This document shows, piece after piece, positions 3,267 to 63,341 of a stretch of 64,000 nt of DNA (position 1 is the first letter of the stretch; each line of letters starts with the position of its first letter). The stretch is from Longitalea luteola. Lineage in GTDB: Bacteria > Bacteroidota > Bacteroidia > Chitinophagales > Chitinophagaceae. The stretch covers positions 1 through 64,000 of the forward strand of contig NZ_JAFIQX010000007.1 of the NCBI RefSeq assembly GCF_017356035.1, given 5' to 3'. Below the pieces are notes generated by a model. The model worked only from the letters and a program-made list of their open reading frames with translations, was not told where the DNA came from and made no database searches. A program made the translations under genes and the position numbers.

Positions 3267-3302
3267 TTGTACTCTGTTCAAAGTATTGCCCATTTATACA
3301 AA

Positions 3303-3329
3303 GGCCACTCAATTACGAGTGGCCGTTTT
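3303..3329 (+). terminator. Bidirectional hairpin terminator
   Basis: Perfect 8-bp stem GGCCACTC/GAGTGGCC (3303-3310 and 3317-3324) with a 6-nt loop and a short T run, between two convergent genes. It probably stops transcription from both sides. Confidence 0.7.
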
Positions 3330-3350
3330 GCTGCGTATGAAAAATACTCC

Positions 3351-41917: not shown

Positions 41918-43021
41918 ATGTCTAGAAAATGGATGCTGCTTTGTTTATTGCTGTCCGGGGTAATGGTTACTTCACAAGCACAGCTAAGCATGACATTACA
42001 GGTGCCACCGGCAGGCGTACTCATGAAAAATCAGTTATGGAATGTAGTGCTGGTAAATGCCGGTAATTTCAATATGCTGGTAAAAGTAAATCTGGTTTTG
42101 CTGGATGCGCAGACCAACCAGCCGGTGATCACTGCGGTATCGGCGCCCGTGGCCTTGGGCAAAGGCGCCCGGCAGTTACAGGCCAAAGATGTTGCCCCTG
42201 TTCAATACACCTATAGTATTACGGCCGGGAAGGTTGATATGGACCCAAACGGTTTGTTACCGGCCGGCCGTTACCAGGCCTGTTATTCAATAGTGAGCGC
42301 AGACAAAGGGAATATTACCTGGGTGGAGAATTGTATTCCCGTTAACGTGGATCCGTTGAGCCCGCCCTTGCTGAATACCCCTGCCAACGAGGATAAATTG
42401 ATTACGCCATATCCGCAATTTACGTGGTTGCCGCCTACGCCGTTAGGACTGTTCAATGACCTGGGTTATGCCATTGTGGTCGTAGAGGTTTTGCCGGGGC
42501 AGGGAAAAGCCGATGCTATTCAACAGAATGTGCCATTGAACGCTTCTGTATATACGAAAGATCTTTTTTGGAATTATCCTGCATCAACCAGGTCATTGGA
42601 TACCGGCAAGGTGTATGCATGGCGGATAGTAGCTATGAATAGTGGCAAAGCGGTTGCGTTGAGTGATATCTGGACGTTCGGGGTAACGGCTGTTAAACCG
42701 GCTGTTGCCACTGTAAAAGAAGCGCCTTATGTTGAAGTACAACGCGCCCAGGACGCCTCTATTGCCACTGCAGGGAACGTGCTGCGGGTAACTTATAATA
42801 ATGCAGCCGCCGATACCTCAATAAAATATACCATTACCAGTATTGAAGAGCCCGGTAACCCGGTCGTACAGGAAGGTGAGTTGAAGGTGCAATATGGCCC
42901 CAACCAGTTGCAGGTGCCCATAAAGAAAAATAGAAGGATCGTTGAAAGCAGGGTATACCTGTTCCGGTTTACCAGCAGCCGTAATGAAAGCTGGAGTGTA
43001 AAATTCACTGTGACGAAATAA
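41918..43021 (+). CDS. Secreted protein with Ig-like and fibronectin-III-like regions
   Basis: 367 aa. Signal peptide MSRKWMLLCLLLSGVMVTSQAQ. Residues ~25-145 form a β-domain (LSMTLQVPPAGVLMKNQLWNV...). Residues ~150-245 look FnIII-like: PPLLNTPANEDKLITPYPQFTW then DTGKVYAWRIVAMNSGKAVALSDIWTF. A third β-region closes the protein. Starts 10 bp after the barrel gene. Function unknown; probably a periplasmic or surface partner of the barrel or the giant proteins. Confidence 0.7.
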   Translation: MSRKWMLLCLLLSGVMVTSQAQLSMTLQVPPAGVLMKNQLWNVVLVNAGNFNMLVKVNLVLLDAQTNQPVITAVSAPVALGKGARQLQAKDVAPVQYTYSITAGKVDMDPNGLLPAGRYQACYSIVSADKGNITWVENCIPVNVDPLSPPLLNTPANEDKLITPYPQFTWLPPTPLGLFNDLGYAIVVVEVLPGQGKADAIQQNVPLNASVYTKDLFWNYPASTRSLDTGKVYAWRIVAMNSGKAVALSDIWTFGVTAVKPAVATVKEAPYVEVQRAQDASIATAGNVLRVTYNNAAADTSIKYTITSIEEPGNPVVQEGELKVQYGPNQLQVPIKKNRRIVESRVYLFRFTSSRNESWSVKFTVTK

Positions 43022-46000: not shown

Positions 46001-49000
46001 CAGCGAGGGGTTGAAAACCTATAACCGGGATGATAAAGCGCATTATATCAGCGGTAAAAAAGAAATGTGGTATTTGCATTCTATTGAATCAAAGACCATG
46101 ATAGCCACTTTTACGCTTCAGCACAGGGAAGACCTGCAAGCGATCAGCGAAAGCGGTATGAAATCTAAAAGCTTAAAAGCTTTCTGCCTGAAACAGATCG
46201 ATCTGTATTCAAAAGCTGACTTTTTAGCCCGTGGCACCAACGCGACTCCTGTAAAAACAGTTCATTTCGAATACAGCTATGAGTTGTGCCGTGGAATAAA
46301 CAAATTTGGAAATAATCAGGGTAACGATTCAGGTAAACTGACGTTGAAAAAAATATGGTTCACTTATAATGGCAACGAGAAAGGCAAGTTGAATCCGTAT
46401 GTGTTTTATTATCACAAGAACAATCCCCGGTACATAAGCAATGCCAGCGATAAGTGGGGAACCTATAAGGATCCGGCGCAAAACCCGGGTGCCACTGCAG
46501 GCAATCCGCTGACCAATGCCGACTATCCATATGCATTACAGGACAGCGCCCTGGCTGCCTATAACGCAGCTGCGTGGATGCTGGATTCAATAAAATTACC
46601 TTCCGGCGGGCGCATTAAAGTGAAATACGAAAGTGACGATTATGCGTATGTTCAAAACAGGCGGTCGACACAAATGCTGCAACTGGCAGGCTTTGGACAA
46701 ACCAGCTCCGGCTCGTATAACGATAGATTGTATACAGTGGAGGGGGATCTAAGCACCCACGATCATTTATTTGCTTATGTAAGGATTCCGGTACCGGTAG
46801 CTACAAAAGCAGAATTGTATGCCCGCTACCTGGAAGGTATGAGCAAACTATACTTCAGGCTGTTTGTGCAGATGCCCGATAATGATGGGTATGGTTCCGG
46901 TTCGGAGTATGTGCCCTGTTATGCGGAACCTGATGTGGCAGCCGCCAACTGGTATGGATTTACCAACGATCCGAATGTGATCTGGATCAAAGTAGCTGGT
47001 GTGAACAATGACGGTGATGGCGGCGGATCGTTGAGTCCGCTGGCACAGGCTGCCATCAACTATCTGCGGTTAAACCTGCCATCAAAAGCATACTACCGGT
47101 CAGAGCCAGGTGATGATCTTAACCCCATGGATGCTGTACGGGTGCTGGTGCCTTCATTGCCCGACCTGTCGAATATGCTGCTCGGCTATACCAAATCGGC
47201 ACGGTTCAGGAACCAGGCTGCTCATACTGTTCCGGCCCGTTCATATGTTCGGTTGAATTATGCAACCGGCAAAAAGTTAGGTGGCGGTTTACGGGTAAAA
47301 ACCATTCTGATCTATGATCACTGGAACGCCATGACGCGGAAAAAGGAAACCATATACGGACAAAACTATGATTATACAACAACGCAAACCATAAATGGAA
47401 AAGAAACGCGCGTAAGCAGTGGCGTGGCTGCCTGGGAACCGGTTATCGGCGCAGAGGAAAACCCTTTCCACCTGCCCATCGAATACCAGGACCGGGTTTC
47501 GATCATGGCGCCTACTGCGGCGCAGTATAGTGAAGAACCATTGGGGGAAGCATTTTTTCCAGGAGCAACAGTTGGATACAGCAAAGTGCGGGTAAGAGGT
47601 ATACACACCGATAAAACCCGCTCTGCGAATGGTTATGCTGAAACAAGATTCTATACGACTTATGATTTCCCCACTACATGGGACTGGTCGGTAATTGATA
47701 ATGATACCAAGAAGCGCTATAAACCACTGCTCAGGAATTTCCTCCGCATAGATGCCAAAAGCTTCCTCAGCATTGCACAGGGTTTTAAAGTGGAACTGAA
47801 TGATATGAACGGAAAACTGCGTTCTGAAGCCAGCTATGCAGAAAACGATCCTAAAAACCCTGTTACTTACACAGAGTATTTCTATCATGTTGAAAATGGC
47901 GATGTAACGTTTAAACAATTGAAAAATCTGGTTACGACCATCGATCCCTACGGAAATGTTGATACGGCGGCTACTATTGGTAAGGATGTGGAATTGATGG
48001 CTGATATGCGCGACCAGACTTCTGTCTCCATCGGCGCCAACGTAAATGTGAACAGCGACTTTTTTACGGTGGGATCATTCCCTGCGCTCATTCCAACACT
48101 CATCCCGCTGTTCCAGAAAGAGACTAACCAGTTCAGGTCAGCGGCAATGACAAAAGTGATCCGCCGGTATGGAATTGTTGACAGTGTAGTGGTCATTGAT
48201 AAAGGAAGTAAGATATCTACAAAAAATATCCTGTATGATGCAGAAACGGGTGATCCGTTGCTGACAAGAACACAAAATGAGTTTAATGATCCGGTTTACA
48301 ATTTCACTTACCCGTCACATTGGGTGTATAAAGGGGTGGGACCAGCCTACCAGAATATCGGTGCTATTCTTGAACACCTGGAAGTAAAGAATGGTAAGAT
48401 CACTGACGGATTGAACGGTTTGGATACGTTATACCTGACGGCCGGCGATGAATTGTTGGTGTACAGCAAGGAAACTATAAATGCAACAGGCTGTTCTATC
48501 AGTTCCTATGCGTTCTTCCCGGATAGTTATAAATTATGGGTCATAGATTCCAATGCTGTTAACGGAGGTCCGCAGCAACTGTTCCTTGTAGATAAGAACG
48601 GAACACCCTTCTCTGGTAATGATATAACACTAAAAGTAACCCGTTCAGGCCACCGGAATATAAATGGTTCCGTAGGTTCCGTAACATCATTGCGCAGCCC
48701 ATTGGTAAGGGGCGGCGATGGAAAATATCACCTGGTGTTTGATACGGCTACAAAGGTGGTAAATGCCGGCGCCAGTGAGCTGGCGCAATACTGGAAAGTA
48801 GCTGATAGAAGAAGAATGGATGTGCTGAAAGATTGTGTACCTACATCCAGGGATAGTGCGCGGTTTGCCAATGAAGCCTGCTCCTGTATGAAACCGTTCT
48901 TCGATCATCTGATACAGAGCAATCAGTTATTTATAAGAAGTTTTTTTCAGCGTAAAACCATAGGCCAGTTGGTGAGTGAAATAAATACGCCAGGTTTTGA

Positions 49001-51095
49001 TATAAACAACTGTCCTATATTGAAGGAGAACCTGAACAGCTATTTCCGGCCCGTATCTGCCGATCCTAACGGGGAAGTGTATGCCTGTCGTATTGGAAAT
49101 ATTGAGATCAACCTGCTTCGCCGCAGTCCTTCCAGTATGTCATTCTACGATCTAACGACGAGCACATGTACTTCGGAAGGGGTTATATATAAAAGTCCGA
49201 ACGTGGTGATCCCCGAACCGGATACCGTTACCGTTCGCATAGCGCCTGATTTTTCGGCCAGCATGTTGTCGACACAGAATTGTCCAACATTCAGGGATTC
49301 GCTTACGCTGATCGATTCAACGTCAGACAGGTTGTTGGTAGAAACCAACCTCAACCTGGGTGGCACTGAACGCAATGCTATTTCCATTATGCGCTTCAAC
49401 AATGTAAGCCAGATCCCCGCCAGGGCCGACATTTTATCAGCCCGGCTCATTTTGCAGGCCGATCAGCGCGGACATCATCCTACTTATTTCCCCTATGCCA
49501 ACTCGGTGAATCCGGTTGATACCCTGAGTGTGTCCTTGTCTGCAACAGGGTGGTTTCCCCGGGTGCCGCTGGAATCGTTGCACGATCAGTTGACCACCAG
49601 TCCGTGGCATAGAGAGATCGGGAGAACGGTGCCATTCCAGAATGATACGATCGACGTAAGATCATACGTGGAAGGTTACAGGAATAGAGATTACACTTCT
49701 GCGTCGTTCATCCTGGCGCAGGGCTCCAAGGATTTTCATACAAATGTTTCAGGTTATGGTGCAGGTTATGAAGAAGCGCCCGGTTACATGCAAAGCGGTT
49801 ATGGAAATTATTATTCAACCATTTATTCGCAGCGATATGCCGATCCGGCGAAATGGCCGGTGATGGAGGTGACCTACGTAGTATATCCGCCATTCCCCGA
49901 TACCATGGGCGCTGTGCTGCGCTATAATTCTACCCTGGAATGTACTGATATCAGCAGCAGCTTATGTTATAGTGCTGTTACTGATACTACGGTAAACCCT
50001 TATCAATATGGCATCCTGGGTAATTATCGTGCGTTGCGCAGTTATGTATATTATGGCCGTCGTATAGAATCTGATCCCCTGCAACCCATCAATACTCGTA
50101 AAAATGGGGTTATAAAGGATTTCGCACCATTCTGGATCTTACAGGGTAAAAACTGGGTGCCCACTTATGATACTACCCGATGGGTATGGAACGCACAAAC
50201 CACCTTGTTTAACCGAAAAGGTTTTGAGCTCGAAAATAAAGATCCGCTCGGCCGCTATAATGCAGGTATCTATGGCTATGGTTTAACGCTGCCCGTAGCA
50301 GTGCTGCAGAACAGCCATTTCCAGGAAGGCGCTTATGAAGGCTTTGAAGATTATGGCTTTGAAACAAACAACTGTGACAATGCCTGTCCGGTGGCTAGAT
50401 CCTTCGACTGGTCATCGCACCAGGACGATTTCACCAAAGTACAATCGCATTCAGGTTTGTATAGTTTGAAGGTAGACAGAGACAGCCTCACAAGTATTAC
50501 CACCGATATACTGCCTGCTGCTGATGGCGTTGTCACCACGTTGTCATCAGCACTGAAATCAGGCCCCTGTGGTAACCAGCTCAAGGGTATGCAGGCCTCA
50601 AGGAGCACCGTGCTGCCAAACTTTGCACCGATAGCCGGTAAAAAGGTGATCGTGGGGGGATGGGTAAAAGAAGAGAACAGTTGCCAGTGTAAAAGCTACA
50701 CCCGCAATCATATTCTGGTTGGCTTTACGGTAGGCGGAACCGTGAATACCGTTCAGTTAAGTCCATCGGGCAACCTGGTTGAGGGATGGCAGCGATATGA
50801 AGCAGTGGTAGATATTCCTGCCAATGCCACAAAAATGACGCTGACATTGCAGGCCTCGGATTCTGCCACTACGTATTTCGACGACATCCGCATTCATCCT
50901 TTCAATGCACAAATGAAATCGTTTGTATACAATGCGGTGAACCTGCGCTTAATGGCGGAGCTGGATGAGAACAACTATGCTACTTTCTATGAATACGATG
51001 ATGATGGCACGTTGGTGCGGGTAAAGAAGGAAACCGAACGCGGCGTGCAAACGATTAAGGAAAGCAGGAGTGCGCTGTTAAAAGAACCACAATAA
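43098..51095 (+). CDS. Giant SpvB/RHS-like secreted protein with PA14 domain
   Basis: 2665 aa. Signal peptide at the start, then the RHS-associated opening NMVDLFTGDFSYNIPLLDVG and SGITMDEEASWVGLGWNINPG (residues ~115-180). A PA14-like domain at ~672-790 has YFDWERWTPYW…FTVRWLGSLKAPVTGTYDFGV. A DNRLRE/CBM96-like region lies at ~2078-2265 (ILSARLILQADQRG), a carbohydrate-binding-like jelly roll at ~2415-2615, and an end ATFYEYDDDGTLVRVKKETER. There is no RHS core closing motif and no toxin tail, so it is likely a structural or adhesive companion of the toxin-bearing RHS protein. A palindromic element is inserted near residue 86-97. Confidence 0.82.
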   Translation: MILSLAYRYQKHIALFLISISFVQVTIAERIVYYKGSSTVTFSYKSYGEKGIGSPAFSFEKMKSPELDYKPRISEVGQYSQSDANSPSTEGGRREAVFIGGPTQPESQSFSSVNSNNMVDLFTGDFSYNIPLLDVGGYPVNIAYHSGITMDEEASWVGLGWNINPGSITRNMRGVPDDFNGGADTMKKVSSIKPNKNWGVTVGADFELFGLSAYAKNNQIVIDTVSKGITVGGSFGIFHNTYKGWGFERSLNASINVGNKSTGTLSGGLSLTDNSQEGITIRPSLSYQYTLNTKNENFTAGAGISLAAPYNSRTGLKAIQLGMNVKPRIYGISRRFEAGLDFAWPTYSPSITMPMTNSNTSVTIKVGYEAKGTHPTGFISGYWGQEYIAPADTSVSIPVFGYLNYQNLVGNRDAVTDFNREKEMIYREKPAIPHIAVPSYTYDVFSMSGEGTGGSFRPYRGDIGFIADHRSRTKTTTDAASIDIGLGDAVHGGVDLNRNYSYTQTGPWESENIIANTINFKSSKKLFEAVYFRNPAEKAINTTAFYDAIGGDDVVVPALAQDSRNSPSITASNTLNRYSGKTKVGSIDINAASATRNTRDKRSQVITYLTAQEAAVSGLDKYIYHHTINKFGSRHCDDVSVSDKLGKGVGVIGYYYPNREFKPPYFNPTQLNSTIYFDWERWTPYWLDKDGYPRIKIDRNFVNDNFTVRWLGSLKAPVTGTYDFGVRMDDRCRLWMNDTLLFDNWKPGSGPDWMTKRINLVKDHFYKLRVEYIELGGNGYAHMAFAWRRPDQQNRPWDKDHKDSIPGIYMYPPTYVDTAIVDEVITREDRVNNFRKSNHISEINVLNPDGRRYVYGIPVYNIQQKEVSFSVTKDNRQNNQTGMTTFSPDENSTRNSSGKSGYYSRQETPAYAHSFLLTGILSPDYVDVTSNGISDDDIGDAVKFNYAKSAGIASPFEWRAPYNDSANYSEGLKTYNRDDKAHYISGKKEMWYLHSIESKTMIATFTLQHREDLQAISESGMKSKSLKAFCLKQIDLYSKADFLARGTNATPVKTVHFEYSYELCRGINKFGNNQGNDSGKLTLKKIWFTYNGNEKGKLNPYVFYYHKNNPRYISNASDKWGTYKDPAQNPGATAGNPLTNADYPYALQDSALAAYNAAAWMLDSIKLPSGGRIKVKYESDDYAYVQNRRSTQMLQLAGFGQTSSGSYNDRLYTVEGDLSTHDHLFAYVRIPVPVATKAELYARYLEGMSKLYFRLFVQMPDNDGYGSGSEYVPCYAEPDVAAANWYGFTNDPNVIWIKVAGVNNDGDGGGSLSPLAQAAINYLRLNLPSKAYYRSEPGDDLNPMDAVRVLVPSLPDLSNMLLGYTKSARFRNQAAHTVPARSYVRLNYATGKKLGGGLRVKTILIYDHWNAMTRKKETIYGQNYDYTTTQTINGKETRVSSGVAAWEPVIGAEENPFHLPIEYQDRVSIMAPTAAQYSEEPLGEAFFPGATVGYSKVRVRGIHTDKTRSANGYAETRFYTTYDFPTTWDWSVIDNDTKKRYKPLLRNFLRIDAKSFLSIAQGFKVELNDMNGKLRSEASYAENDPKNPVTYTEYFYHVENGDVTFKQLKNLVTTIDPYGNVDTAATIGKDVELMADMRDQTSVSIGANVNVNSDFFTVGSFPALIPTLIPLFQKETNQFRSAAMTKVIRRYGIVDSVVVIDKGSKISTKNILYDAETGDPLLTRTQNEFNDPVYNFTYPSHWVYKGVGPAYQNIGAILEHLEVKNGKITDGLNGLDTLYLTAGDELLVYSKETINATGCSISSYAFFPDSYKLWVIDSNAVNGGPQQLFLVDKNGTPFSGNDITLKVTRSGHRNINGSVGSVTSLRSPLVRGGDGKYHLVFDTATKVVNAGASELAQYWKVADRRRMDVLKDCVPTSRDSARFANEACSCMKPFFDHLIQSNQLFIRSFFQRKTIGQLVSEINTPGFDINNCPILKENLNSYFRPVSADPNGEVYACRIGNIEINLLRRSPSSMSFYDLTTSTCTSEGVIYKSPNVVIPEPDTVTVRIAPDFSASMLSTQNCPTFRDSLTLIDSTSDRLLVETNLNLGGTERNAISIMRFNNVSQIPARADILSARLILQADQRGHHPTYFPYANSVNPVDTLSVSLSATGWFPRVPLESLHDQLTTSPWHREIGRTVPFQNDTIDVRSYVEGYRNRDYTSASFILAQGSKDFHTNVSGYGAGYEEAPGYMQSGYGNYYSTIYSQRYADPAKWPVMEVTYVVYPPFPDTMGAVLRYNSTLECTDISSSLCYSAVTDTTVNPYQYGILGNYRALRSYVYYGRRIESDPLQPINTRKNGVIKDFAPFWILQGKNWVPTYDTTRWVWNAQTTLFNRKGFELENKDPLGRYNAGIYGYGLTLPVAVLQNSHFQEGAYEGFEDYGFETNNCDNACPVARSFDWSSHQDDFTKVQSHSGLYSLKVDRDSLTSITTDILPAADGVVTTLSSALKSGPCGNQLKGMQASRSTVLPNFAPIAGKKVIVGGWVKEENSCQCKSYTRNHILVGFTVGGTVNTVQLSPSGNLVEGWQRYEAVVDIPANATKMTLTLQASDSATTYFDDIRIHPFNAQMKSFVYNAVNLRLMAELDENNYATFYEYDDDGTLVRVKKETERGVQTIKESRSALLKEPQ
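43354..43385. repeat. GC-rich palindromic element inside the 2665-aa gene
   Basis: CTCCCCCTCCACTGAAGGGG followed by GCCGGCGGGAGG, near-identical in plan to the copy at 41,667 but read in another frame (NSPSTEGGRREA). The host frame is kept. Confidence 0.8.
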
Positions 51096-51164: not shown

Positions 51165-51914
51165 ATGAGAAAGATCATATTGTGTATGCTCACAGGGTGT
51201 TTGCTGATCCAGGTTTCAGCTACGGCCGCAGATTCTACAGGTGCAGTGAAACAGTTTATGCAGCGGGTGCAGCAGGCATACAGGTCGGCGTCGTACCTAA
51301 GCTTTCATGTGCATTACCGGTATGCGAATCAGAACCAGCCTGAAAATTATATCGACACGATGTCGGGCGAAGTGGCAATGGATAAGAACCGCATGCGGTA
51401 TTTGATCGAGGATATAGAAACGGTCACCAACGATAAGTATACGATACAGGTAATAAAGGATCAAAAGCTGATCTATCTCTCTATGCCCCGGCCGGCCCAA
51501 TTGCCCGATCCGGTGGCTATGCTCGATACGGTGCTGGCCCGTCTGGATGGAATACGTACGCAGATCACCCGTGACAAAGGCATTGCTACGTTGCAAATCA
51601 ATTTTCCACCCGGGCAAACCTATAAGAACATAACTATGTCGGTGAATGAAGCAACGGGTTATTTTCAAAAAATAGTGTATGAATTATATACCGAAGGTTT
51701 CGTGGAGAAAGATCAGTTGAAGCAGCCAGGTAACAATGGATCTTATCAGGCGGAAGGTCGTATAGAGATCTTGTTTACTGGTTACCGGCAGGGGCAGTTC
51801 ACCGATAAACTGTTCAGCGAAGACCAGTACTTCACCCGGCTGGGCCAGGGAACGTATGAGCCATCGGAAAAGTACAAGGATTACCAGCTATTCCTGGCAT
51901 CTCCAAAATTGTAA
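51165..51914 (+). CDS. LolA-like periplasmic protein of unknown role
   Basis: 249 aa. Signal peptide MRKIILCMLTGCLLIQVSATA. The body has the half-barrel-like order of LolA/LolB-type proteins: VQQAYRSASYLSFHVHYRYA, GEVAMDKNRMRYLIEDIETV, LIYLSMPRPAQLP, and ITMSVNEATGYFQKIVYEL. Similarity is at fold level only. It lies between the two giant genes (69 and 77 bp gaps) and may act as their chaperone on the way to the surface; this is inference. Confidence 0.6.
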   Translation: MRKIILCMLTGCLLIQVSATAADSTGAVKQFMQRVQQAYRSASYLSFHVHYRYANQNQPENYIDTMSGEVAMDKNRMRYLIEDIETVTNDKYTIQVIKDQKLIYLSMPRPAQLPDPVAMLDTVLARLDGIRTQITRDKGIATLQINFPPGQTYKNITMSVNEATGYFQKIVYELYTEGFVEKDQLKQPGNNGSYQAEGRIEILFTGYRQGQFTDKLFSEDQYFTRLGQGTYEPSEKYKDYQLFLASPKL

Positions 51915-51991: not shown

Positions 51992-54900
51992 ATGCAGACC
52001 CATTTCCTTTATCGTTATTTACTACTGATCGGCTTTATTTGTAGTATAGCTGTAGCCCGTGCCGGTGATGGCGGAGGCGTGGTGGCGCGAACTGTTCTGG
52101 ATGGTAGTAAAAACCAGGTGCATGCAGATTCTTCACGTACCGTAGAAGATTCCGCGTTCTTCAATGCTGCTGCCATTGGAGTTGATACCGGTTATTCGGT
52201 TCAGAATGTGATCACGTTTAAAATAAATGAAGCCGCGAAAATATACCTGCGAACAGCGTTCACCGTTACCGCACACCTGCGGATCATTTATAGCAATGGG
52301 TCTGCTATAGATTCGATCGACAGGCCATTTACCATCAACTACGATTCGGCCAACAGTTACAATGCCCGCAACAGTTTTGTGTTTTATGGCGGCCGCCGAG
52401 TGACGGTAAAAGTGTTGTCGATAGACTCCAATGGCGCTACCTGGAATGTATCATCGGCACTGATGATCGAGAACCAGCTGACCGCCAAACCTAAATATGT
52501 TTTCTCCTGCACGAATACGGTAACCAATATTACAGTAACACCCGTGGCTGATACGGCCGATGAACTGCCGGTAAGCTGGACGGCTGTAAGAGGCGCCGAT
52601 CAATATGACCTGGAATGGACCTACATCGATGCTTCAGCGCTGGCGCTGGGCCGGTACAACACCAATGGTGTGCCTGACCCGGCATTGATCTTTTATCATA
52701 ATGCCACCCGCGTTAGCACGACCGGTAACTCGTATAACATTCCATTGATGTATGAAAACAACGGAACATTATTTATAAGGGTGCGACCGGTGCAGATCGG
52801 TAAAGCGAATGCTGTCCTGGCTGCCCTCTGGAGCTCGGAAGCATCGCCATCGGTAATGGGACAGTATACATTTAACGGTCATGAACGAATGCTGAACTGG
52901 CAATCAAGCGTCAGTTTTGCCGAAGAAGGCAAAAGAAAAGTGGTGGTGCAGTATTTTGACGGGGGCCTTCGTGGCCGACAGACCGTGACGAAAGACAATA
53001 CCAATAACAATGTAATTGTCGCAGAGACTTTTTATGATTACCAGGGCCGGCCGGCCATCCAGGTGATGCCTTCCCCTTCATTGAGCAATGTGATCCGGTA
53101 TGCTGCCGGTTTCAATGTAAGCATCAATAACGCGGAGTACAGCCAAAGTAATTATGATACGCTGATCAGCCCTGATCTGTATTGTAACACGCATGCAGAG
53201 GCGATGGGGCCCGGTTCAGGCGCCAGCCAGTATTATTCCCCCAACAACCCAAAGAAAACGATCGGGATGAACCAGTTCATTCCCGATGCGCAGGGCTATC
53301 CTTTTACCGAAACGGAATATACCCCCGATAATACCGGCCGCATCAGCCGGCAAAGTGGAGTAGGGCCTGACCACCAACTGGGCAGCGGTCATGAGACAAA
53401 ATATTTTTATGGCACGCCCGATCAAAAAGAACTGGATGGCCTGTTTGGTACGGACGTAGGGGATGCCTCGCACTACTTTAAGAATATGGTGCGGGATGCC
53501 AATGGGCAGTTCAGCATCAGCTATGTTGATATGCATGGCCGCACCATTGCCACCGGCCTGGCTGGTGAAGCCCCAACAAACCTGGCGCCATTGGCGTCGA
53601 ACGGCAGCCGCCAGGTGACGGAGAACCTCGTTGATTCTGCCGGAAGGTTCATTCAGAACTGGGACCTGCTGAGCCAGAAATCGCTGGTAGTATCCAAACC
53701 GGGGGAGCACACCTTTAAATATAAACTCGACCCTGCCTCTTTAATAGAGCAGAACTGCGATACGCAAAATATTTGCTATACCTGCTTGTACGACCTGCAG
53801 GTAACGATCACCGACAATTGTAATAACCAGTTGTTGCCTGGTAAAAAAGCCTTTGATACGGTGCTGCATAATTTTTCCCTTGGTGCTATTACGCCTGACT
53901 GCAGCAGCCCTTCACCGGTAAATCTGAACTTTACTTTGTATTTGCCTGCAGGCAGCTACCAGATAACCAAACGGCTTACGGTGAACCGCAATGCCTTTAA
54001 TTATTATCGCGATAGCCTGTACATGCCCAACAATACGTGCCGGTCACTGCAGGATTTTATTACGGAGCAACGCAAATTGATTGCGGAGCAGAATGCTAAC
54101 TGCGAGCCCACCTGTGATGGCTGCCGGGCCAGTGTAGGTACGCTGGAGCAGTACCGCACTAAATTTATCACGCAAACCGGTATAGCGCCGCAAGACGTGG
54201 CAGGTTATGAAACGCAAATAGCGCTGGCTTATAAAAGCGCCATTGAAGCCTGTAATGAACTTTGTGGCGATAGTTCCTCCACCGATAATGATGTTCGCGC
54301 CGCGATGTTGCAGGACCTGACGCCGCCTTACGGCCAGTATGCAGATACGACCAAAGAGAACGGCGAAGATATTTATTCGATCTTTTATATAGATCCCAAG
54401 AAAGAATTTACCTATGATCCGGTATTTAAGCTGGAAGGTGTGGTGTACCGTGATGCCAACGGTCAACCTGACAAGGTCTACAACCTGCAAACCAACCTGA
54501 TGGTAGAACCGAACGCGCTGACGAAGCTGGAGTTTACGCAAAACTTCCGCACAAGTTGGGCGGAAGCTTTGTTGCCCTATCACCCGGAGTATTGCAAGCT
54601 GAAGGTGCTGGAATCATTAAAGGCCAGCAATGTGTGGGACCGCCGGATGGAGAAGGTAGATAACTACCATGATGCCATTGACTCGGGTTACCTGAACCCT
54701 ACGGGCATACAAAGCTTAAGTGGTAAGTATCCGATCAAGGCCAGCAATCTGGATCCATTTATCAGTTTACGTCCGGATAAAAAGGCGGAGCTGGAGACCA
54801 GACTGAATCAATACCTGCAGTTGAAAAACGGCCCGATGGTGAATATGTGGAGCATGGCCAATGCGATCGTGAAGTGTGATTCAGGTAATACAGCCTGCGT

Positions 54901-57900
54901 AAGTTATTACCACAATAATGGCAATCAGTCGCGCAATTTTGATCCTTCCTGGTGCGATGGCGATCTGGACCAGGCGTGGCAAACCTTCCGACAGTTGTAC
55001 CTGGCGGCGAAACAGGACATCATCAACAAGCTGGTGAACAATCCAACGGGCTGTACACCGCTCAACCAGGCGTTTAATAATAAGATCCCGACGCGTAAGG
55101 AGCTCATCGATAAAGGGCATCAGCCGCAGTTTACAGAAGATACCAAACAGGCAGCCAGCGATGAAGGGCTTGATTATATGAATGATCCTGATAAGGTGAA
55201 CGAGGCTAAAGCCGGCGGCCAGCAGGAGCTGAATAGAATGTACGATGAGAACTGCACGGCGCTGGTAGAGCAGTGGCGCGCGCAATTGTCGCATTGTTAC
55301 AATGAGGGTGCGTTAAATACGATCCTACCCTTGTTGAAGGGGCTGTGCCGCACGGCTTGTGATCTGGAGCATTTATTTGGCGCCAGTACGTTGCCTGCCG
55401 GAAGAGATTACCAGGGTTATCACAGCTTTAAAGAGATCATAGACAATTATAACAGTACCCATGGCATAACCAATAATGTAGATTGTAATGCCGAGTTGAT
55501 CACGATGCCTGCTCCCTATGACAAACAACCGGCATATTATAACAAACCGGTTTTTACCAAACCTGGGGACTGTGAGTGTAAACTGATCAATGATCATTAT
55601 ATCCGTTACACGGTAGGCAAAAGACGGGGCAGTGGCGATGGCAGTTTTTCGGCTTATATGAAAAGAACGCAAGGGGTGACGATGACCGACAGTGATCTTG
55701 AGATCTTACGCAATGTATGTAACACCCTTAGTACTCCTACGGAAGCAGGTATAGCGTGTACATTCCTGAAAACGCCCATTTACCTGCCACCGGCGCTGCA
55801 ATGTAATACAGGAGAGTCATGTAGCTCCTGCACGGTGGTACAGGGCCTGTATCAAAGTTTTAAACAAGAGTATCCCAACGATACGCCGCGTATCGCAGAA
55901 GCAGATGATACGTTACAGATCAAACGCAATACGCTTTTCCAGAACTATATGAATAACCGGTTGGGTTATTCCCTCCAAAGCTGGGAGTACCTGCAGTTTT
56001 TGAAGCAGTGCGCCGACTCAGCCGGCACGATCCGCAATGTTACCGAGTGTGTAGATCAGCGGATCGGTGGGTTCTTCCTGGCGGCCGCTTCGGGTAAACT
56101 GGAAGATGTGCAGGCAACGCCGGATCATGGTTATATCATGGCTGGTAAAACAGGTTCCAATGCGGTATTGATAAAAACCGACAGTGTGGGCGCCATTCAA
56201 TGGTCAAGACAATATGAAGGCAGTAGCGACGATTACTTTAAACGGGTACGGCGCACCGCTGATAATGGGTACATCTCTATTGGTACAACCAAATCGGGTC
56301 ATTATGCAAGCGGCGCCATACTGGTGGTTAAGACCGATGCGAGTGGTGCGGTCCTTTGGGAAAAAGCGATTGGTTTTGGAACACCTTTGGGTGAGCGTGG
56401 TTATGATATTATTGAGACTACCGACGGTGACTACGCTGCACTGGGCTTATATAACCAGCATACTGGTTTTGGAGAACTTGTACTGACCAGTCTGCAAAGC
56501 AATGGAACCATAAACTGGACACACCGTTTTGGCACCAGCCGGTTGCAGAATAATAGTTATGCCTGTTATAACCCCGGCGCCGATACGGTGGACTATGATG
56601 GTTCTCCGTCTTACGGCCTGTTGCAGGATGCCGATACGTTGCTGGTGACCGGCGCAGCTTATGACCGCAATGTAAGTGATCGCTATTTTGGCGTGGTGCA
56701 CCGCATCGATAAGAAGAATGGCAGCCTGCTATGTTCCTGGCATTATGCCGATAGCACCAGTGAAACGAAGAGCCTTTGGTTCAGGGATATTTATGCTACA
56801 GCCAATGGCTACTTGTTGATGGCCAATAATGCCGAAAAGCTTGGAACAGTCAACCAGCAGGTGTCAGTAGTGAACCTGGCAAAAAGCGGTGAAGTAATAT
56901 CTTATAAACGGTTCAATGTACCAGCGGGTAGTAATAGGATGGTGACCTCGGCCGTGTTCCCAACTACCGATGGAGGTTACATGATAGCACAAACAGGCAA
57001 CAACAGCCAGCATATAATCTGGCAGCGGATGGATGCAGCGGGAACTTTATTATGGTCAGCTGAAACAGCATTACCCGGTACGCAAACCGTTGGCCGGATC
57101 ATCCAGAAAAATGACAGCAGCTTTGCGGCAGTGGGTGATAATAATGGCCAGATGGTGATGCTGGTGATAAAACCGAATTTTGGTTGTTATGATAATACGG
57201 TTCAGTTGGGTACTGCTGATCCGGTTATGGGCCGGATCAACTGGGCGCCGGTGGCCAGTGAGTTTGTAACACCTGCGAACACCGAAATCAGTCTAACGCC
57301 AATGGCGGTGATGGCAAAAGATTCAAGCCTGACCTGCCCCGGTAGTGGCAATTGTTATGAATATTATGAAGGGCCAAGGTTGTGTGGTAAATCACAGCCT
57401 GTACTGCCGCCCTTCCGTGATGAATACATAGGCGCCTGTTCTGACAGTACGTTCTTTGCGATCACTAAAGGAACAGAGTTGCATAAAGTATATACCGATT
57501 CACTAACGGGTGCCTTTGAGCGGAACTATATTGAAAAATGTTTGCAGGCTTACCGGTATGAGTCGTTTACGGTTACCTACACGAAGAATGAATATCATTA
57601 CACATTGTATTATTATGATCAGGCGGGCAATTTGATCCGTACGGTATCACCCGCGGGTGTAAATCCAATCACTGATTCTATAGAATTGGAACAGGTAAAG
57701 GCAGCACGGGCTGCGGGTACAGAGAAGCTGCCAGGACATACGTTATACACCGATTACCGGTATAATACCCTGAACCAGGTGGTGGCGCAGCATTCACCCG
57801 ATGGAGGAACGAGCGCCTTCTGGTACGACCGGTTGGGACGATTAGCAGTGTCGCACAATGCGAAGCAGGAAGACAGTGCACAATACAGTTATACGAAGTA

Positions 57901-60706
57901 TGATCTAATAGGCCGGATCACAGAAGTTGGGCAGTTAACCAGTAGTACGGTCATGGCGGATGCCACGAGCAGAAACCAGGCAGGGTTGGAAAGCTGGTTG
58001 ACAAATGCAGCGCCTACGGCAGAACAGATCACTAAAACTACCTATGATATTGAATATCCGGGTGTGGACCCTGTGTTGAAGACGAGGAACCTGCGCAACC
58101 GGGTGTCATGGACTGCCTTGTACAATAAAGCTAGTGAACTGGGCAGTTTCAATTTCGCTGCCGCCAGCTTTTACACGTATGATATCCTGGGTAATGTAGA
58201 TACCTTGTTGCAGTATTATAAGCAGGGCATACTATATGATAACAACATTGGAGTAAAGAAGATTGCTTATGACTACGATTTGGTAAGTGGTAAAGTGAAC
58301 CAGGTAAGTTATCAGCCTGGCCAGCCGGATGCATTTTATCATAAATACTTGTACGATGCCGAGAATCGTATAACGAATGTGCTTACGAGTACAGATAGTA
58401 TCAATTGGGATAATGATGCCTTCTATCAGTATTATGATCATGGACCGCTGGCCCGAACCGTCTTGGGCGAACAACAGGTGCAGGGTATAAACTATGCGTA
58501 TAACCTGCAGGGCTGGTTAAAGTCGATCAATCCGGATGTGTATGTTGGCGCGGGATACACCTTAAAGCCCGATGGCAGTACAGGCAGTGTGGTTGGAAGA
58601 ACCGCTTACAATGTAATGCTAAATTATTATAATGGAGATTTTAAAGCCATCAGCGGCGCTACGCCGGCCGATGCTGCACTGACCACTAGATTAATAAGTG
58701 AGCAAGCTTATCGACCGCTGTACAATGGAAACATCAGCAGTATGGCGGTGAATATTGAGAAGCTGGGTAATCCGCAATTGTACAACTACCAGTACGATCA
58801 GCTTAACAGGATCGTAGCTATGGATGCCTGGAAAATGACAGGAAATACATGGGGTGATCTAACGCATCAGGGCGACTTCCAGGAGCGGGTGAGCTACGAT
58901 GCCAATGGAAATATATTAAGTTATAAGCGGAATGGGAATACAGCTGGCGGCAAGCCGTTGGATATGGATAAGCTGACTTACAGCTATAAACCAGGCACCA
59001 ATCAACTGGACTACGTATACGATACAGTGCCTGCTGGTAACTACGATGTTGATATTGATGCGCAGACTGCCGCAAACTACGCGTATGATTCTATTGGGAA
59101 CCTGGTTAAAGATAATGCGGAAGGGATCACCAGTATCAGTTGGACAGTGTATGGAAAAATAAGCCGCATTGTCAAAGGAGATAGTGTTGATATTAGATAT
59201 GTCTATGATGCCGGTGGAAACCGGATTGGTAAAACCGTGGTGAAAACCGGATCAACTGATACGGCACGGACCTGGTATGTAAGAGATGCGCAGGGTAATG
59301 TGATGAGTGTGTATGAGGCAGGTAAACCAGCAGTGAACAATGGCCATCTGACGCAATCGGAGTTGCATTTGTATGGAAGCAGCCGGATAGGCTTGTTGAG
59401 ACGTAAATTGGATATGGGTTATCAGCCGGATCCTGGCGCTGATCCATCGAAAATAACCATGCCGTTATTAGGTACGGGTGATAGTCTTACCTTTGTACGA
59501 GGAGACAAGCTCTTTGAACTAAGTAATCATTTGGGGAACGTACTGGTGACTGTGAATGATAAAAAGCTGGGGGTTTCAGCTGATAACAGCATCGTTGATT
59601 ATTTCAATCCCCAGGTTGTAAGTGCACAGGATTATTATCCGTTTGGCATGTTGCAGCCAGGAAGGAGTTATAATGCGGGTGGGTATAGGTTTGGGTTTAA
59701 TGGGCAGGAAATGAACAATGATGTTAAAGGATTGGGTAGTAGTTATTCTTCACAATTCTGGGAATACGATAGTAGATTGGGGAGGAGGTGGAACATTGAT
59801 CCAATTTATAAGAATAGCCCCTATGAAGTTTTTGGCGGTAATCCGATTGCATTTTCCGATCCAAGTGGAGCTGATACAATTAACATTAATAGAACAACAA
59901 CAGTAAGGAGATTTGCTAGTAGAGGTGGAGGATTAGACGGAGTATCTGTAAAGAAGGTTCCTGATCAAGTTACAAGGACGGCTGATATTGGTATTATACA
60001 GGCCAGCGGTGATGATGTGTTTAGAATAAACGATAAATACGTCATAATTGATGAAAATGGGCAAGTAACAACAACTTCAACAACAACTACGTTAAATCTC
60101 AATAATGCTCAAACCTTTTATAGAACGGGTGGGCATAACATGAAGGGCTACATAGATGACAGATATGCGCTAGCTGCAAATTCACCTGACTGGCTATTGC
60201 ATTACTATGCAAATAAGAGTGGCGATATAGGAGTCAGAACGGCATTGGCTTATCAGAAAGACGTTCCTTTCGCAGCCGGGGTAGAAAAAATTACAAATGT
60301 TGCCTATGCTCTCAGTGGAGCCTATGGCGTATTCAGAATGCTGGTTCCTCGAACAGCATTTACTTCATATATTAATTTGGCAAGTCAGCAGCGGACCATA
60401 CATATTTTAGCAGGTGACGCAACTGGTGGTGGGCATTCATGGTTTAGTAGCTTAAAAAGTTTTACTAATGGGATCACAGGTAAGAAAAGTATGTTTCCTG
60501 CAAGTTGGAGTGGTAAAAAAATTATGCATGCCATATCGGATGTGGCTGTGAATAATCCCTGGATACAACAAAGTGGTAGAGCAGGAGCGCAATTTACCCG
60601 AAGCGGTGCGCCGGTTAGGTATGCGGTTGAAGGTTACTATGAGGGGGTGAAAATCAAAGTTATAACAACAGCGGACGATATTATAACAGCGTTTCCAATT
60701 AAATAA
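51992..60706 (+). CDS. RHS-repeat polymorphic toxin with C-terminal EndoU nuclease domain
   Basis: 2904 aa. Signal peptide (~1-24); β-rich N-terminal part to ~300; a DUF6443-like RHS-entry region (~300-530); a Cys-rich helical middle (~580-1350); a seven-fold style β-propeller-like stretch (~1358-1726; TPDHGYIMAGKTGSNAVLIKT, TADNGYISIGTT); RHS/YD repeats (~1870-2540); and an RHS core end YYPFGMLQPGRSYNAGGYRF…NPIAFSDPSGAD (~2548-2628). The variable tail ends in an EndoU fold: H2804 (HILAGDATGGGHSW, second His 2815), FPASWSGKKIMHAISDVA, GVKIKVITTADDIITAFP. EndoU toxins of CdiA and MafB cut RNA. The tail is visibly AT-richer than the body and is followed 3 bp later by a MafI-like gene. Confidence 0.88.
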   Translation: MQTHFLYRYLLLIGFICSIAVARAGDGGGVVARTVLDGSKNQVHADSSRTVEDSAFFNAAAIGVDTGYSVQNVITFKINEAAKIYLRTAFTVTAHLRIIYSNGSAIDSIDRPFTINYDSANSYNARNSFVFYGGRRVTVKVLSIDSNGATWNVSSALMIENQLTAKPKYVFSCTNTVTNITVTPVADTADELPVSWTAVRGADQYDLEWTYIDASALALGRYNTNGVPDPALIFYHNATRVSTTGNSYNIPLMYENNGTLFIRVRPVQIGKANAVLAALWSSEASPSVMGQYTFNGHERMLNWQSSVSFAEEGKRKVVVQYFDGGLRGRQTVTKDNTNNNVIVAETFYDYQGRPAIQVMPSPSLSNVIRYAAGFNVSINNAEYSQSNYDTLISPDLYCNTHAEAMGPGSGASQYYSPNNPKKTIGMNQFIPDAQGYPFTETEYTPDNTGRISRQSGVGPDHQLGSGHETKYFYGTPDQKELDGLFGTDVGDASHYFKNMVRDANGQFSISYVDMHGRTIATGLAGEAPTNLAPLASNGSRQVTENLVDSAGRFIQNWDLLSQKSLVVSKPGEHTFKYKLDPASLIEQNCDTQNICYTCLYDLQVTITDNCNNQLLPGKKAFDTVLHNFSLGAITPDCSSPSPVNLNFTLYLPAGSYQITKRLTVNRNAFNYYRDSLYMPNNTCRSLQDFITEQRKLIAEQNANCEPTCDGCRASVGTLEQYRTKFITQTGIAPQDVAGYETQIALAYKSAIEACNELCGDSSSTDNDVRAAMLQDLTPPYGQYADTTKENGEDIYSIFYIDPKKEFTYDPVFKLEGVVYRDANGQPDKVYNLQTNLMVEPNALTKLEFTQNFRTSWAEALLPYHPEYCKLKVLESLKASNVWDRRMEKVDNYHDAIDSGYLNPTGIQSLSGKYPIKASNLDPFISLRPDKKAELETRLNQYLQLKNGPMVNMWSMANAIVKCDSGNTACVSYYHNNGNQSRNFDPSWCDGDLDQAWQTFRQLYLAAKQDIINKLVNNPTGCTPLNQAFNNKIPTRKELIDKGHQPQFTEDTKQAASDEGLDYMNDPDKVNEAKAGGQQELNRMYDENCTALVEQWRAQLSHCYNEGALNTILPLLKGLCRTACDLEHLFGASTLPAGRDYQGYHSFKEIIDNYNSTHGITNNVDCNAELITMPAPYDKQPAYYNKPVFTKPGDCECKLINDHYIRYTVGKRRGSGDGSFSAYMKRTQGVTMTDSDLEILRNVCNTLSTPTEAGIACTFLKTPIYLPPALQCNTGESCSSCTVVQGLYQSFKQEYPNDTPRIAEADDTLQIKRNTLFQNYMNNRLGYSLQSWEYLQFLKQCADSAGTIRNVTECVDQRIGGFFLAAASGKLEDVQATPDHGYIMAGKTGSNAVLIKTDSVGAIQWSRQYEGSSDDYFKRVRRTADNGYISIGTTKSGHYASGAILVVKTDASGAVLWEKAIGFGTPLGERGYDIIETTDGDYAALGLYNQHTGFGELVLTSLQSNGTINWTHRFGTSRLQNNSYACYNPGADTVDYDGSPSYGLLQDADTLLVTGAAYDRNVSDRYFGVVHRIDKKNGSLLCSWHYADSTSETKSLWFRDIYATANGYLLMANNAEKLGTVNQQVSVVNLAKSGEVISYKRFNVPAGSNRMVTSAVFPTTDGGYMIAQTGNNSQHIIWQRMDAAGTLLWSAETALPGTQTVGRIIQKNDSSFAAVGDNNGQMVMLVIKPNFGCYDNTVQLGTADPVMGRINWAPVASEFVTPANTEISLTPMAVMAKDSSLTCPGSGNCYEYYEGPRLCGKSQPVLPPFRDEYIGACSDSTFFAITKGTELHKVYTDSLTGAFERNYIEKCLQAYRYESFTVTYTKNEYHYTLYYYDQAGNLIRTVSPAGVNPITDSIELEQVKAARAAGTEKLPGHTLYTDYRYNTLNQVVAQHSPDGGTSAFWYDRLGRLAVSHNAKQEDSAQYSYTKYDLIGRITEVGQLTSSTVMADATSRNQAGLESWLTNAAPTAEQITKTTYDIEYPGVDPVLKTRNLRNRVSWTALYNKASELGSFNFAAASFYTYDILGNVDTLLQYYKQGILYDNNIGVKKIAYDYDLVSGKVNQVSYQPGQPDAFYHKYLYDAENRITNVLTSTDSINWDNDAFYQYYDHGPLARTVLGEQQVQGINYAYNLQGWLKSINPDVYVGAGYTLKPDGSTGSVVGRTAYNVMLNYYNGDFKAISGATPADAALTTRLISEQAYRPLYNGNISSMAVNIEKLGNPQLYNYQYDQLNRIVAMDAWKMTGNTWGDLTHQGDFQERVSYDANGNILSYKRNGNTAGGKPLDMDKLTYSYKPGTNQLDYVYDTVPAGNYDVDIDAQTAANYAYDSIGNLVKDNAEGITSISWTVYGKISRIVKGDSVDIRYVYDAGGNRIGKTVVKTGSTDTARTWYVRDAQGNVMSVYEAGKPAVNNGHLTQSELHLYGSSRIGLLRRKLDMGYQPDPGADPSKITMPLLGTGDSLTFVRGDKLFELSNHLGNVLVTVNDKKLGVSADNSIVDYFNPQVVSAQDYYPFGMLQPGRSYNAGGYRFGFNGQEMNNDVKGLGSSYSSQFWEYDSRLGRRWNIDPIYKNSPYEVFGGNPIAFSDPSGADTININRTTTVRRFASRGGGLDGVSVKKVPDQVTRTADIGIIQASGDDVFRINDKYVIIDENGQVTTTSTTTTLNLNNAQTFYRTGGHNMKGYIDDRYALAANSPDWLLHYYANKSGDIGVRTALAYQKDVPFAAGVEKITNVAYALSGAYGVFRMLVPRTAFTSYINLASQQRTIHILAGDATGGGHSWFSSLKSFTNGITGKKSMFPASWSGKKIMHAISDVAVNNPWIQQSGRAGAQFTRSGAPVRYAVEGYYEGVKIKVITTADDIITAFPIK

Positions 60707-60709
60707 GTT

Positions 60710-60958
60710 ATGGAACAATTATTAACAAATATAATCAATAAGGCGGCTCTGTTTGGGCTACCTCCTTCAGACATCTCTAATGCGAAAGAGTTTTTAGACC
60801 ATCATGAGTATGCATTGTGTCTTGAAACGATCACTGTTCAATTATATGAAAATGAAATAAGGATTGATAATGAATTTTATCAACTGGTAGTAAATGCAGC
60901 TAAAAAGATGAAGGCTTCAATAAGTGATTTCGATTATATTATATCGTTGATTGGGTAA
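60710..60958 (+). CDS. MafI-family immunity protein
   Basis: 82 aa, all helical. LFGLPPSDISNAKEFLDHHE, then YALCLETITVQLYENEIRID, fits the MafI immunity pattern (LG-P…DI…A…FL…EY…A-ET…LYE). MafI proteins protect against MafB toxins, several of which carry EndoU domains. ATG lies 3 bp after the stop of the RHS-EndoU gene, so the two are translationally linked. Expected to bind and block the EndoU domain in the cytoplasm. AT-rich like the toxin tail. Confidence 0.87.
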   Translation: MEQLLTNIINKAALFGLPPSDISNAKEFLDHHEYALCLETITVQLYENEIRIDNEFYQLVVNAAKKMKASISDFDYIISLIG

Positions 60959-63113: not shown

Positions 63114-63341
63114 ATGAAAAAATTGCTGTTTTTCCTTATCCTCGGGTGCTTCAACAAGGTGCTCCAAGCTCAGTACATCTACACCATCAAAGCCGATAGT
63201 GTAAAGATCACCAACAACTGCGATACGGCGGAGTTGATAATCGAGAATACAATTGTTTATGAAGCGAATTCTCTTCGTTTTTGCACTGCTGTACCTCGAA
63301 AAAACTCTACGTGCCCAAACCCCGTACATCTACACCATTAA
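63114..63341 (+). pseudogene. Truncated copy of the N-terminal module (copy 3)
   Basis: Starts as an intact signal peptide plus module (MKKLLFFLILGCFNKVLQAQ, YTIKADSVKITNNCDTAELI) but breaks at IEN (63,249). The frame then runs into the 5' end of the next copy in a wrong register and stops at 63,341. A deletion or recombination inside the conserved module is the likely cause. Confidence 0.8.

What the first reader, a model, noticed from the sequence alone, without database searches (positions are those of the whole stretch)
51992..60958. RHS toxin with an EndoU nuclease tail and a MafI-type immunity gene in a Bacteroidota
Seen: the last ~100 residues of a 2904-aa RHS protein carry an EndoU-like signature (HILAGD…GGGH, FP-x-SWS, DVA-NNP, ending in TAFP). 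Three bases later an 82-aa all-helical gene matches the MafI pattern. Known: EndoU domains occur in CdiA and MafB toxins, and MafI proteins neutralise MafB toxins. Inference: the MafB/MafI pairing of Neisseria has been mounted on an RHS carrier with an ordinary signal peptide here. How the tail reaches a neighbour cell is open, because no T6SS gene is in view.
Basis: partly seen in the sequence, partly recalled or inferred. Interest (0 to 1): 0.72.

Follow-up and report, generated by a model that had tools for sequence, protein, structure and literature searches.

The report
RHS toxin operon with EndoU-MafI tail
A Bacteroidota bacterium carries a giant swappable-tail toxin whose present tail looks like an RNA-cutting enzyme with a matching antidote gene; that pair is a known kind, but the toxin sits in a repeated, conserved gene cluster with its own predicted outer-membrane barrel and lipid-carrier-like protein that I found described in none of the papers I could search.

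Summary
The last 115 residues of the 2904-aa RHS protein match bacterial EndoU (PF14436, E 2.8e-12, over cut-off), and the 82-aa gene 3 bases on matches MafI (NF033691, 49 bits, cut-off 31). The tail is an exchangeable cassette: a Longitalea homologue is 92% identical over residues 1-2630 and then unrelated. The pair is not special to Neisseria: it is annotated on an E. coli conjugative plasmid, and a MafI gene follows a Salmonella PAAR-Rhs in print. That part is a new member of a known kind.

What surprised me is the carrier's operon. In 40 of 40 loci with a downstream gene in view a LolA3-family gene is followed by such an RHS carrier, and in 39 of 40 preceded by a second giant protein. Upstream lie a predicted outer-membrane barrel and an Ig-like protein, or in other families a lipoprotein and an Skp-like protein. 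Five such modules occur in this genome. Its T6SS has a different Rhs. I propose Sec export, chaperoned transit and surface assembly; delivery is inferred.

The parts
39442..41907 (+). 821-aa predicted outer-membrane beta-barrel (TTG start as called), 'OMP821'
   Evidence: AlphaFold2 of residues 131-821 with 21 sequences: 22 long strands in the last 436 residues, pLDDT there mostly above 70 with dips to 43 in loops, overall 71.8, pTM 0.54; C-terminal Phe. Structural matches: VIA-align ranks FimD usher pores first (Z 17.9), Foldseek ranks LptD first (E 9.3e-7, low TM). No Pfam/NCBIfam hit at E<=0.01.
41918..43021 (+). 367-aa exported Ig/fibronectin-like protein (fold by eye), 'fn367'
   Evidence: Homologue directly upstream of protein A in 39 of 53 named loci with at least 900 nt in view; OMP821 homologue also upstream in 34 of 39 loci with at least 1800 nt and fn367 in view. 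No family hit at E<=0.01.
43098..51095 (+). Protein A: 2665-aa exported giant with a PA14 domain and a conserved YD-like C-terminus (YD by eye)
   Evidence: PA14 E 4.5e-21 at residues 700-796; C-terminal 110 aa aligned in 29 loci with 15 invariant columns; no NCBIfam hit at E<=0.01.
51165..51914 (+). LolA3-family protein, 249 aa, predicted periplasmic
   Evidence: NF053579 E 6.6e-69, 232 bits, cut-off 83; no Pfam LolA model among matches at E<=1.
51992..60706 (+). Protein B: 2904-aa RHS polymorphic toxin carrier
   Evidence: DUF6443 over cut-off at 308-473; YD repeat over cut-off, RHS core 27.6 bits, below its cut-off 32.5; body conserved, tail variable.
51992..52063 (+). Signal peptide of B, residues 1-24 (AxA at 22-24), no lipobox
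   Evidence: Hydrophobicity and regex heuristic; 0 of 74 B homologues scanned have a lipobox by that regex.
59633..59869 (+). RHS core region (residues 2548-2626), with a DPSG motif at its end
   Evidence: TIGR03696 below cut-off; DPSG read in the sequence; homology to five relatives stops at residues 2628-2688.
60362..60706 (+). EndoU nuclease tail (residues 2791-2904 and stop)
   Evidence: PF14436 over cut-off; conserved H, H, K and [ST]; 41% identity to plasmid EndoU proteins.
60710..60958 (+). MafI-family immunity gene, 82 aa
   Evidence: NF033691 E 4e-13.

Best explanation
The locus is one of five copies in this genome of an exported RHS polymorphic-toxin operon: [outer-membrane barrel]-[Ig-like protein]-[giant protein A]-[LolA3]-[RHS carrier B with swappable tail]-[immunity]. 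SHOWN by sequence: gene order and its conservation, exchange of the tail at the end of the RHS core, EndoU and MafI membership, Sec-type N-termini without lipobox. INFERRED: A and B cross the inner membrane by Sec; LolA3 (and, in other families, an Skp-like protein) acts as a dedicated periplasmic holdase or hands over a module lipoprotein; the barrel is the way through, or the anchor in, the outer membrane; B, with A, forms a YD cage at the cell surface that carries the tail; on contact the tail enters a neighbouring cell and cuts RNA (tRNA or U-containing RNA, as for known EndoU toxins); MafI binds the tail and protects kin.
For: EndoU and MafI over curated cut-offs. Known EndoU toxins cut tRNA-Glu (PMC9086364, passages) or U-containing RNA, blocked by MafI (PMC4287609, passages). 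B bodies (residues 301-900) alike in 2145 of 2211 pairs but the last 130 aa alike in only 8 of 2211 (67 carriers). Clean break at residues 2628-2688 against 5 of 5 relatives whose tail is in view; 92% identity up to 2630 in Longitalea. A displaced tail cassette lies downstream at C41:65553-67562, 82% identical to B 2239-2628 and then different. LolA3 followed by B in 40 of 40 and preceded by A in 39 of 40 loci, 30 genomes. Starting from A instead: B downstream in 79 of 80 loci (the 80th ends), LolA3 between them in 58 of 80 and anywhere in view in 60 of 80. fn367 and OMP upstream; lipoprotein family in 23 of 28 and Skp-like in 17 of 26 loci of other families with enough sequence; OmpH PF03938 over cut-off in 2 of 2 Skp-like proteins scanned. 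The same genome has a separate T6SS with its own Rhs.
Against: LolA3 is not needed everywhere: absent from view in 20 of 80 loci, 18 of them with A abutting B. 10 of the 12 mapped genomes that hold such loci have an over-cut-off LolA3 in another place, two have none; a role in trans is possible, not shown. Of 53 loci with enough view, 14 lack fn367 directly upstream of A, 10 of them altogether. The barrel is a predicted fold with pTM 0.54; usher, receptor and LptD barrels are all near in score, so a protein-conducting role is not shown. Lipoprotein/Skp-like and OMP/fn367 are different partners in different families, so the export part is not one fixed machine. NF053579 also matches 341 of 395 genomes at E<=0.001, most below its cut-off and probably ordinary LolA, so the family is defined only by its cut-off, and no Pfam LolA model hits the window protein. 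lolA3 deletion in F. johnsoniae affected neither gliding nor amylase secretion (PMC11885536, passages); whether that gene lies in such an operon was not checked. No structure of the EndoU-MafI complex was obtained.
Confidence: 0.58

Rival explanations
1. B is a T6SS effector: the tail is loaded on the T6SSiii found elsewhere in the genome.
For: The genome has TssC and, beside it, VgrG and an Rhs (TssB and TssD-like genes there by eye); Rhs proteins are classic T6SS effectors (PMC13224477, passages).
Against: B has a Sec-type signal and no PAAR or DUF6531 match at E<=1; the T6SS locus is on another contig and has its own Rhs with DUF6531.
Confidence: 0.08
2. B and A leave by the type IX secretion system, as proposed for TANFOR toxins of Bacteroidota; the operon barrel only anchors them.
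For: SprA is in the genome; TANFOR toxins are hypothesised T9SS cargo and include EndoU tails (PMC7073777, passages); some module loci have neighbours that look by eye like T9SS sorting-domain proteins.
Against: No T9SS sorting-domain model among the matches of B at E<=1 or A at E<=0.01; the C-terminus of B is the toxin.
Confidence: 0.2
3. LolA3 serves only to carry a module lipoprotein (U1) to the outer membrane, and has nothing to do with B itself.
For: U1 in 23 of 28 loci of other families with enough upstream sequence, 14 of them with a lipobox by regex and more by eye; one own-genome module (C12) has a 181-aa lipoprotein-like gene just before A (by eye).
Against: No U1 match in the 80 named loci, 60 of which hold LolA3, nor in the window; but some of those loci show little sequence upstream of A.
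Confidence: 0.3
4. The tail acts on eukaryotic grazers or inside the producer, not on neighbouring bacteria.
For: The EndoU tail of a MafB cut RNA of bacterial and human origin in vitro (PMC4287609, passages).
Against: A specific immunity gene 3 bases downstream is the usual mark of antibacterial toxins (general knowledge).
Confidence: 0.1

Closest known systems
MafB-MafI of Neisseria (EndoU MafB, PMC4287609, passages)
   Same: EndoU tail with a small MafI immunity gene directly downstream; alternative tail cassettes nearby.
   Different: Carrier is an RHS protein with no MafB match; operon with LolA3, protein A and a barrel; other phylum. The Neisseria proteins themselves were not compared here.
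PAAR-Rhs with MafI in Salmonella Tennessee SPI-6 (PMC13224477, passages)
   Same: RHS carrier followed by a MafI-family gene.
   Different: T6SS gene cluster, PAAR domain, tssI-eagR-rhs order; tail of unknown function there. B here has no PAAR and is preceded by LolA3.
EndoU-MafI pair on a conjugative plasmid (NZ_MN823987.1)
   Same: 41% identical EndoU over nearly the whole tail, annotated MafI next to it.
   Different: Annotated there as a small gene without a carrier, beside an IS1 transposase.
TANFOR polymorphic toxins of Bacteroidota (PMC7073777, outline and passages)
   Same: Giant exported carriers in Bacteroidota with variable tails, EndoU among them.
   Different: No TANFOR match seen for B; conserved LolA3/A/barrel operon instead.
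EagR-Rhs of T6SS (gene order from PMC13224477; EagR function recalled)
   Same: A small chaperone-like gene directly upstream of an RHS toxin.
   Different: EagR works in the cytoplasm (recalled); LolA3 is predicted periplasmic and of another family.
LolA3 of F. johnsoniae and P. gingivalis (PMC11885536, PMC13103446, passages)
   Same: Same named LolA paralogue group.
   Different: Neither main text contains the word Rhs; no role or partner is given in the passages seen. Their sequences were not compared here.

Membership tests
Bacterial EndoU nuclease (PF14436) | Score over the curated cut-off | tested here: met
   47.6 and 37.5 bits against 25.3
Bacterial EndoU nuclease (PF14436) | Two catalytic His (PMC3482391, table passage) | tested here: met
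   H15 and H26 invariant in 5 of 5 tails
Bacterial EndoU nuclease (PF14436) | Two [SNT] catalytic positions (same passage) | tested here: inconclusive
   T/S at position 110 in 5 of 5; the second position was not placed, as no structure-based alignment was made
Bacterial EndoU nuclease (PF14436) | RNA cleavage | not testable with these tools
   needs an assay
MafI immunity (NF033691) | Score over the curated cut-off | tested here: met
   49 bits against 31
MafI immunity (NF033691) | Neutralises the adjacent toxin | not testable with these tools
   pseudo-cofold pLDDT 35.9, uninformative
Maf system of Neisseria | MafB carrier domain | tested here: not met
   only EndoU, DUF6443 and a sub-cut-off RHS repeat match B at E<=1 in Pfam; that Pfam holds a MafB model is recalled
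RHS polymorphic toxin | YD/RHS repeats | tested here: met
   TIGR01643 22.1 bits over its cut-off 15.8
RHS polymorphic toxin | RHS-associated core (TIGR03696) | tested here: inconclusive
   E 3e-6 but 27.6 bits, below the cut-off 32.5; DPSG motif at its end
RHS polymorphic toxin | Conserved body, variable C-terminal tail | tested here: met
T6SS Rhs effector | PAAR or DUF6531 N-terminus beside T6SS genes | tested here: not met
   no such match at E<=1; T6SS lies on another contig with its own Rhs
TANFOR polymorphic toxin | TIGR02542 at the N-terminus | tested here: inconclusive
   no such match at E<=1, but I did not verify that this model is in the library
T9SS cargo | C-terminal sorting domain | tested here: not met
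   the C-terminus of B is the EndoU tail; no sorting-domain model among matches of B at E<=1 or A at E<=0.01
LolA3 family (NF053579) | Score over the curated cut-off | tested here: met
   232 bits against 83
LolA3 family (NF053579) | Lipoprotein carrier function | not testable with these tools
   no function given for LolA3 in the passages seen
Chaperone-usher barrel | FimD/PapC fold | tested here: inconclusive
   VIA-align best Z 17.9, receptor barrel next at 15.8; Foldseek puts LptD first; no Pfam hit at E<=0.01

The most novel reading that the evidence does not exclude
Bacteroidota have a dedicated, so far undescribed export and surface-assembly route for RHS polymorphic toxins, built from a giant partner protein (A), a large outer-membrane barrel with an Ig-like partner (or a lipoprotein with an Skp-like chaperone), and a LolA paralogue (LolA3) given over to this job. 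This would give LolA3 its missing function and explain how Sec-exported RHS toxins reach neighbours without T6SS.
Probability: 0.42. Interest if true: 0.82.

Novelty: new variant of a known kind. Interest (0 to 1): 0.62.

Why it matters
The EndoU-MafI pair by itself adds one more carrier to a known toxin-immunity cassette. The operon is worth more: the two LolA3 papers whose passages I saw give that protein no role, and how Sec-exported RHS toxins of Bacteroidota cross the outer membrane is open. A gene order this tight (40 of 40 and 39 of 40) points to candidate partners, and a relative with a single module would make it testable by single-gene deletions.

Tried and rejected
Co-fold of tail and MafI: only a one-sequence run of the read-through product was made, because relatives from genome-search loci are not among the sequences the tool admits; pLDDT 35.9, discarded. 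Relatives of the tail in viral contigs: 65 stretches matched a pattern, none confirmed. MafI in plasmids by single sequence: none at E<=1e-3, though a MafI lies beside the plasmid EndoU that I opened; their BLASTP match is short (37% over 43 aa, E 7e-6). PDB sequence search: none for the tail at E<=10, its profile at E<=1 or B at E<=0.01; one weak, unrelated-looking match each for MafI and LolA3; nine weak ones for the MafI profile; only PA14-type chains for A.

A Fisher test that seemed to link fn367 to LolA3 (p 9e-7) was dropped: many LolA3-less loci show too little sequence upstream of A, so absence there is partly a matter of view. The first count of LolA3 (58 of 80) looked only just downstream of A; two more loci have it upstream of A.

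Prior-art searches in the open-licence library (listings with titles and starts of abstracts seen; passages only where said): eight of which bear on LolA or Bacteroidota RHS toxins (all but 13 and 29). In these listings I saw no report of a LolA-RHS operon; DUF6443 occurs in no paper held. Subscription papers and preprints are not covered. Absence of a family name for the barrel in Pfam/NCBIfam at E<=0.01 is no evidence that it is not an usher, receptor or LptD-like barrel.


Full report
Observation. The 2904-aa ORF at 51992-60706 and the 82-aa ORF at 60710-60958 are as described. The tail passes PF14436 (47.6 bits, cut-off 25.3) and the small protein passes NF033691 (49 bits, cut-off 31). The Pfam match covers only the second half of the EndoU profile, but tblastn aligns residues 3-113 of the 115-residue tail to plasmid-borne EndoU proteins at 41.2% identity in the 20 rows shown (350 records, 342 with at least 80% of the query). 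An alignment of five tails keeps two His, a Lys, FPxxWS and a T/S near the end.

Is the pair chance? In 395 genomes of the class EndoU matches in 15 and MafI in 8, of which 5 over the MafI cut-off. Of the 16 EndoU matches, 4 are followed by a MafI-type gene: the window, a second one in the same genome (C38, weak), G380 and G307. The loci of the other 12 gave no match to my MafI profile, so MafI is one of several partners, or EndoU stands alone, in this class. Of the 9 MafI matches 4 lie beside EndoU; the other 5 do not, and 3 of these are below the MafI cut-off. The close tail type is rare: 3 of 294 genomes of the family, the third a weak match in a large protein that does not look like EndoU. 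MafI-like matches occur in 9 of 294, but 4 of these are parts of proteins of 230-280 aa that look like another family. On E. coli plasmid NZ_MN823987.1 the EndoU gene is directly followed by an annotated MafI gene. A PAAR-Rhs with MafI in Salmonella Tennessee is in print (PMC13224477, passages), and EndoU tails on Bacteroidota TANFOR toxins too (PMC7073777, outline and passages). So the pair is a shared cassette, not a Neisseria loan.

The tail is swapped. Against Longitalea arenae (L120) the carrier is 92% identical over residues 1-2630 and then has no match; four further relatives break at 2628-2688 (L121-L124). Two more, L125 and L197, end before the tail and say nothing. The break falls just after the DPSG motif at the end of the RHS core. 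Over 67 carriers whose stop is in view, bodies match in 2145 of 2211 pairs and the last 130 residues in 8 of 2211. Pfam names the last 260 residues in at most 9 of 67: AHH 2, EndoU 2, glucosaminidase 2, Tox-HNH-HHH 1, Tox-MPTase3 1, WbsX 1. Beyond the window end, C41:65553-67562 holds a displaced cassette: 82% identical to residues 2239-2628 and then another tail.

The operon. Upstream of B lies a LolA3-family gene (232 bits, cut-off 83). In the own genome a LolA3 hit lies directly upstream of all five giant DUF6443 carriers, in one of them below the cut-off (72.2 bits). The three other DUF6443 hits have no LolA3 hit on their contigs, two of which are short (6.3 and 3.8 kb). In the class, 41 of 395 genomes pass the LolA3 cut-off; 341 match at E<=0.001, most of these probably by ordinary LolA. 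I fetched 37 of the 55 over-cut-off places outside the own genome, and the four other own-genome modules. B follows in 40 of 40 with a gene in view, and a match to A precedes in 39 of 40; in the exception an ORF of 158 aa comes first and an A match after it. Of the 20 without LolA3 in view, 18 have A abutting B and two have an S74-peptidase-like gene between them. The A terminus is found in 13 of 203 genomes of the phylum, 6 of them outside the class, and at exactly the five module sites of the own genome.

Upstream of A. In the window lie an 821-aa protein predicted to be an outer-membrane barrel and a 367-aa Ig-like protein. Homologues keep this place: fn367 directly before A in 39 of 53 loci with at least 900 nt in view (4 of the other 14 have it farther off, 10 do not show it), the barrel too in 34 of 39 loci with at least 1800 nt and fn367 in view. 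VIA-align ranks FimD usher pores first (Z 17.9, rmsd 3.9 over 310 residues) with a receptor barrel at 15.8; Foldseek ranks LptD first at low TM-score. It is a large barrel of undecided kind. In other families of the class the place is taken by a 200-aa lipoprotein family (23 of 28 loci with enough sequence) and an Skp/OmpH-like protein (17 of 26); neither was found in the 80 named loci, some of which show little upstream sequence. One own-genome module (C12) has a barrel-sized, an fn367-like and a lipoprotein-like gene together (partly by eye).

How it may get out. A and B start with Sec-type signals: of 70 A and 74 B homologues, 56 and 72 have a clearly hydrophobic start and none has a lipobox by my regex, so ordinary lipoprotein carriage of A or B by LolA3 is unlikely. 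The genome has a T6SSiii with VgrG and a DUF6531 Rhs of its own and a T9SS translocon gene, but B has neither PAAR/DUF6531 nor a sorting domain. I therefore favour Sec export, periplasmic holding by LolA3, and surface assembly of A and B through or at the barrel. The comparison with EagR, whose gene precedes T6SS rhs genes, is an analogy; the function of EagR is recalled.

LolA3 in print. F. johnsoniae lolA3 deletion affected neither gliding nor amylase secretion (PMC11885536, passages); P. gingivalis LolA3 binds LolB only weakly and was thought to have a separate function (PMC13103446, passages). Neither main text contains 'Rhs'. My paper searches showed no report of a LolA-RHS operon (listed under Tried and rejected).

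Verdict. Finding confirmed. EndoU-MafI on RHS: new member of a known kind. The operon makes it a new variant of a known kind, with a possible new export route that the evidence does not exclude.

Noticed in passing
38246-39352, 61241-63082, 63114-63341, 63253-63759; further copies in L013 (C41:60000-79999): A family of genes with a shared start ('YIYTIKADSVKITN.CDTAELIIEN') is repeated on both sides of the toxin operon; related genes in L154 and L160 have a Peptidase_S74 match and sit between A and B.
   Followed up: partly
C41:65553-67562 (beyond the window; L013:5554-7563): Displaced RHS tail cassette: 82% identical to B 2239-2628, then another tail, overlapped at its end by a 172-aa ORF.
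   Followed up: yes
G000 C40:106000-139999 (L116, L117): T6SSiii cluster with TssC, VgrG and a DUF6531 Rhs (TssB and TssD-like genes by eye), separate from the LolA3 modules.
   Followed up: partly
G000 C38:630000-635007 (L012:1-859 and 2630-5008): Further RHS tail pieces downstream of the second EndoU/weak-MafI module.
   Followed up: no
G000 C6:69984-79811 (L118): A 1127-aa plus 2146-aa YD/DUF6443 pair without LolA3: a second class of RHS pair.
   Followed up: no
L190:1074-1808 and L193:1068-1802: LolA3 lies upstream of A instead of between A and B.
   Followed up: partly
L209 (G547:C19): RHS tail and an EndoU-like end in separate ORFs, followed by a MafI-like gene; the carrier looks broken there.
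   Followed up: no
NZ_MN823987.1 (L213) and 349 further plasmid records: EndoU homologues on plasmids, 318 of 350 records typed conjugative; in the one opened, a MafI gene is next to it.
   Followed up: partly
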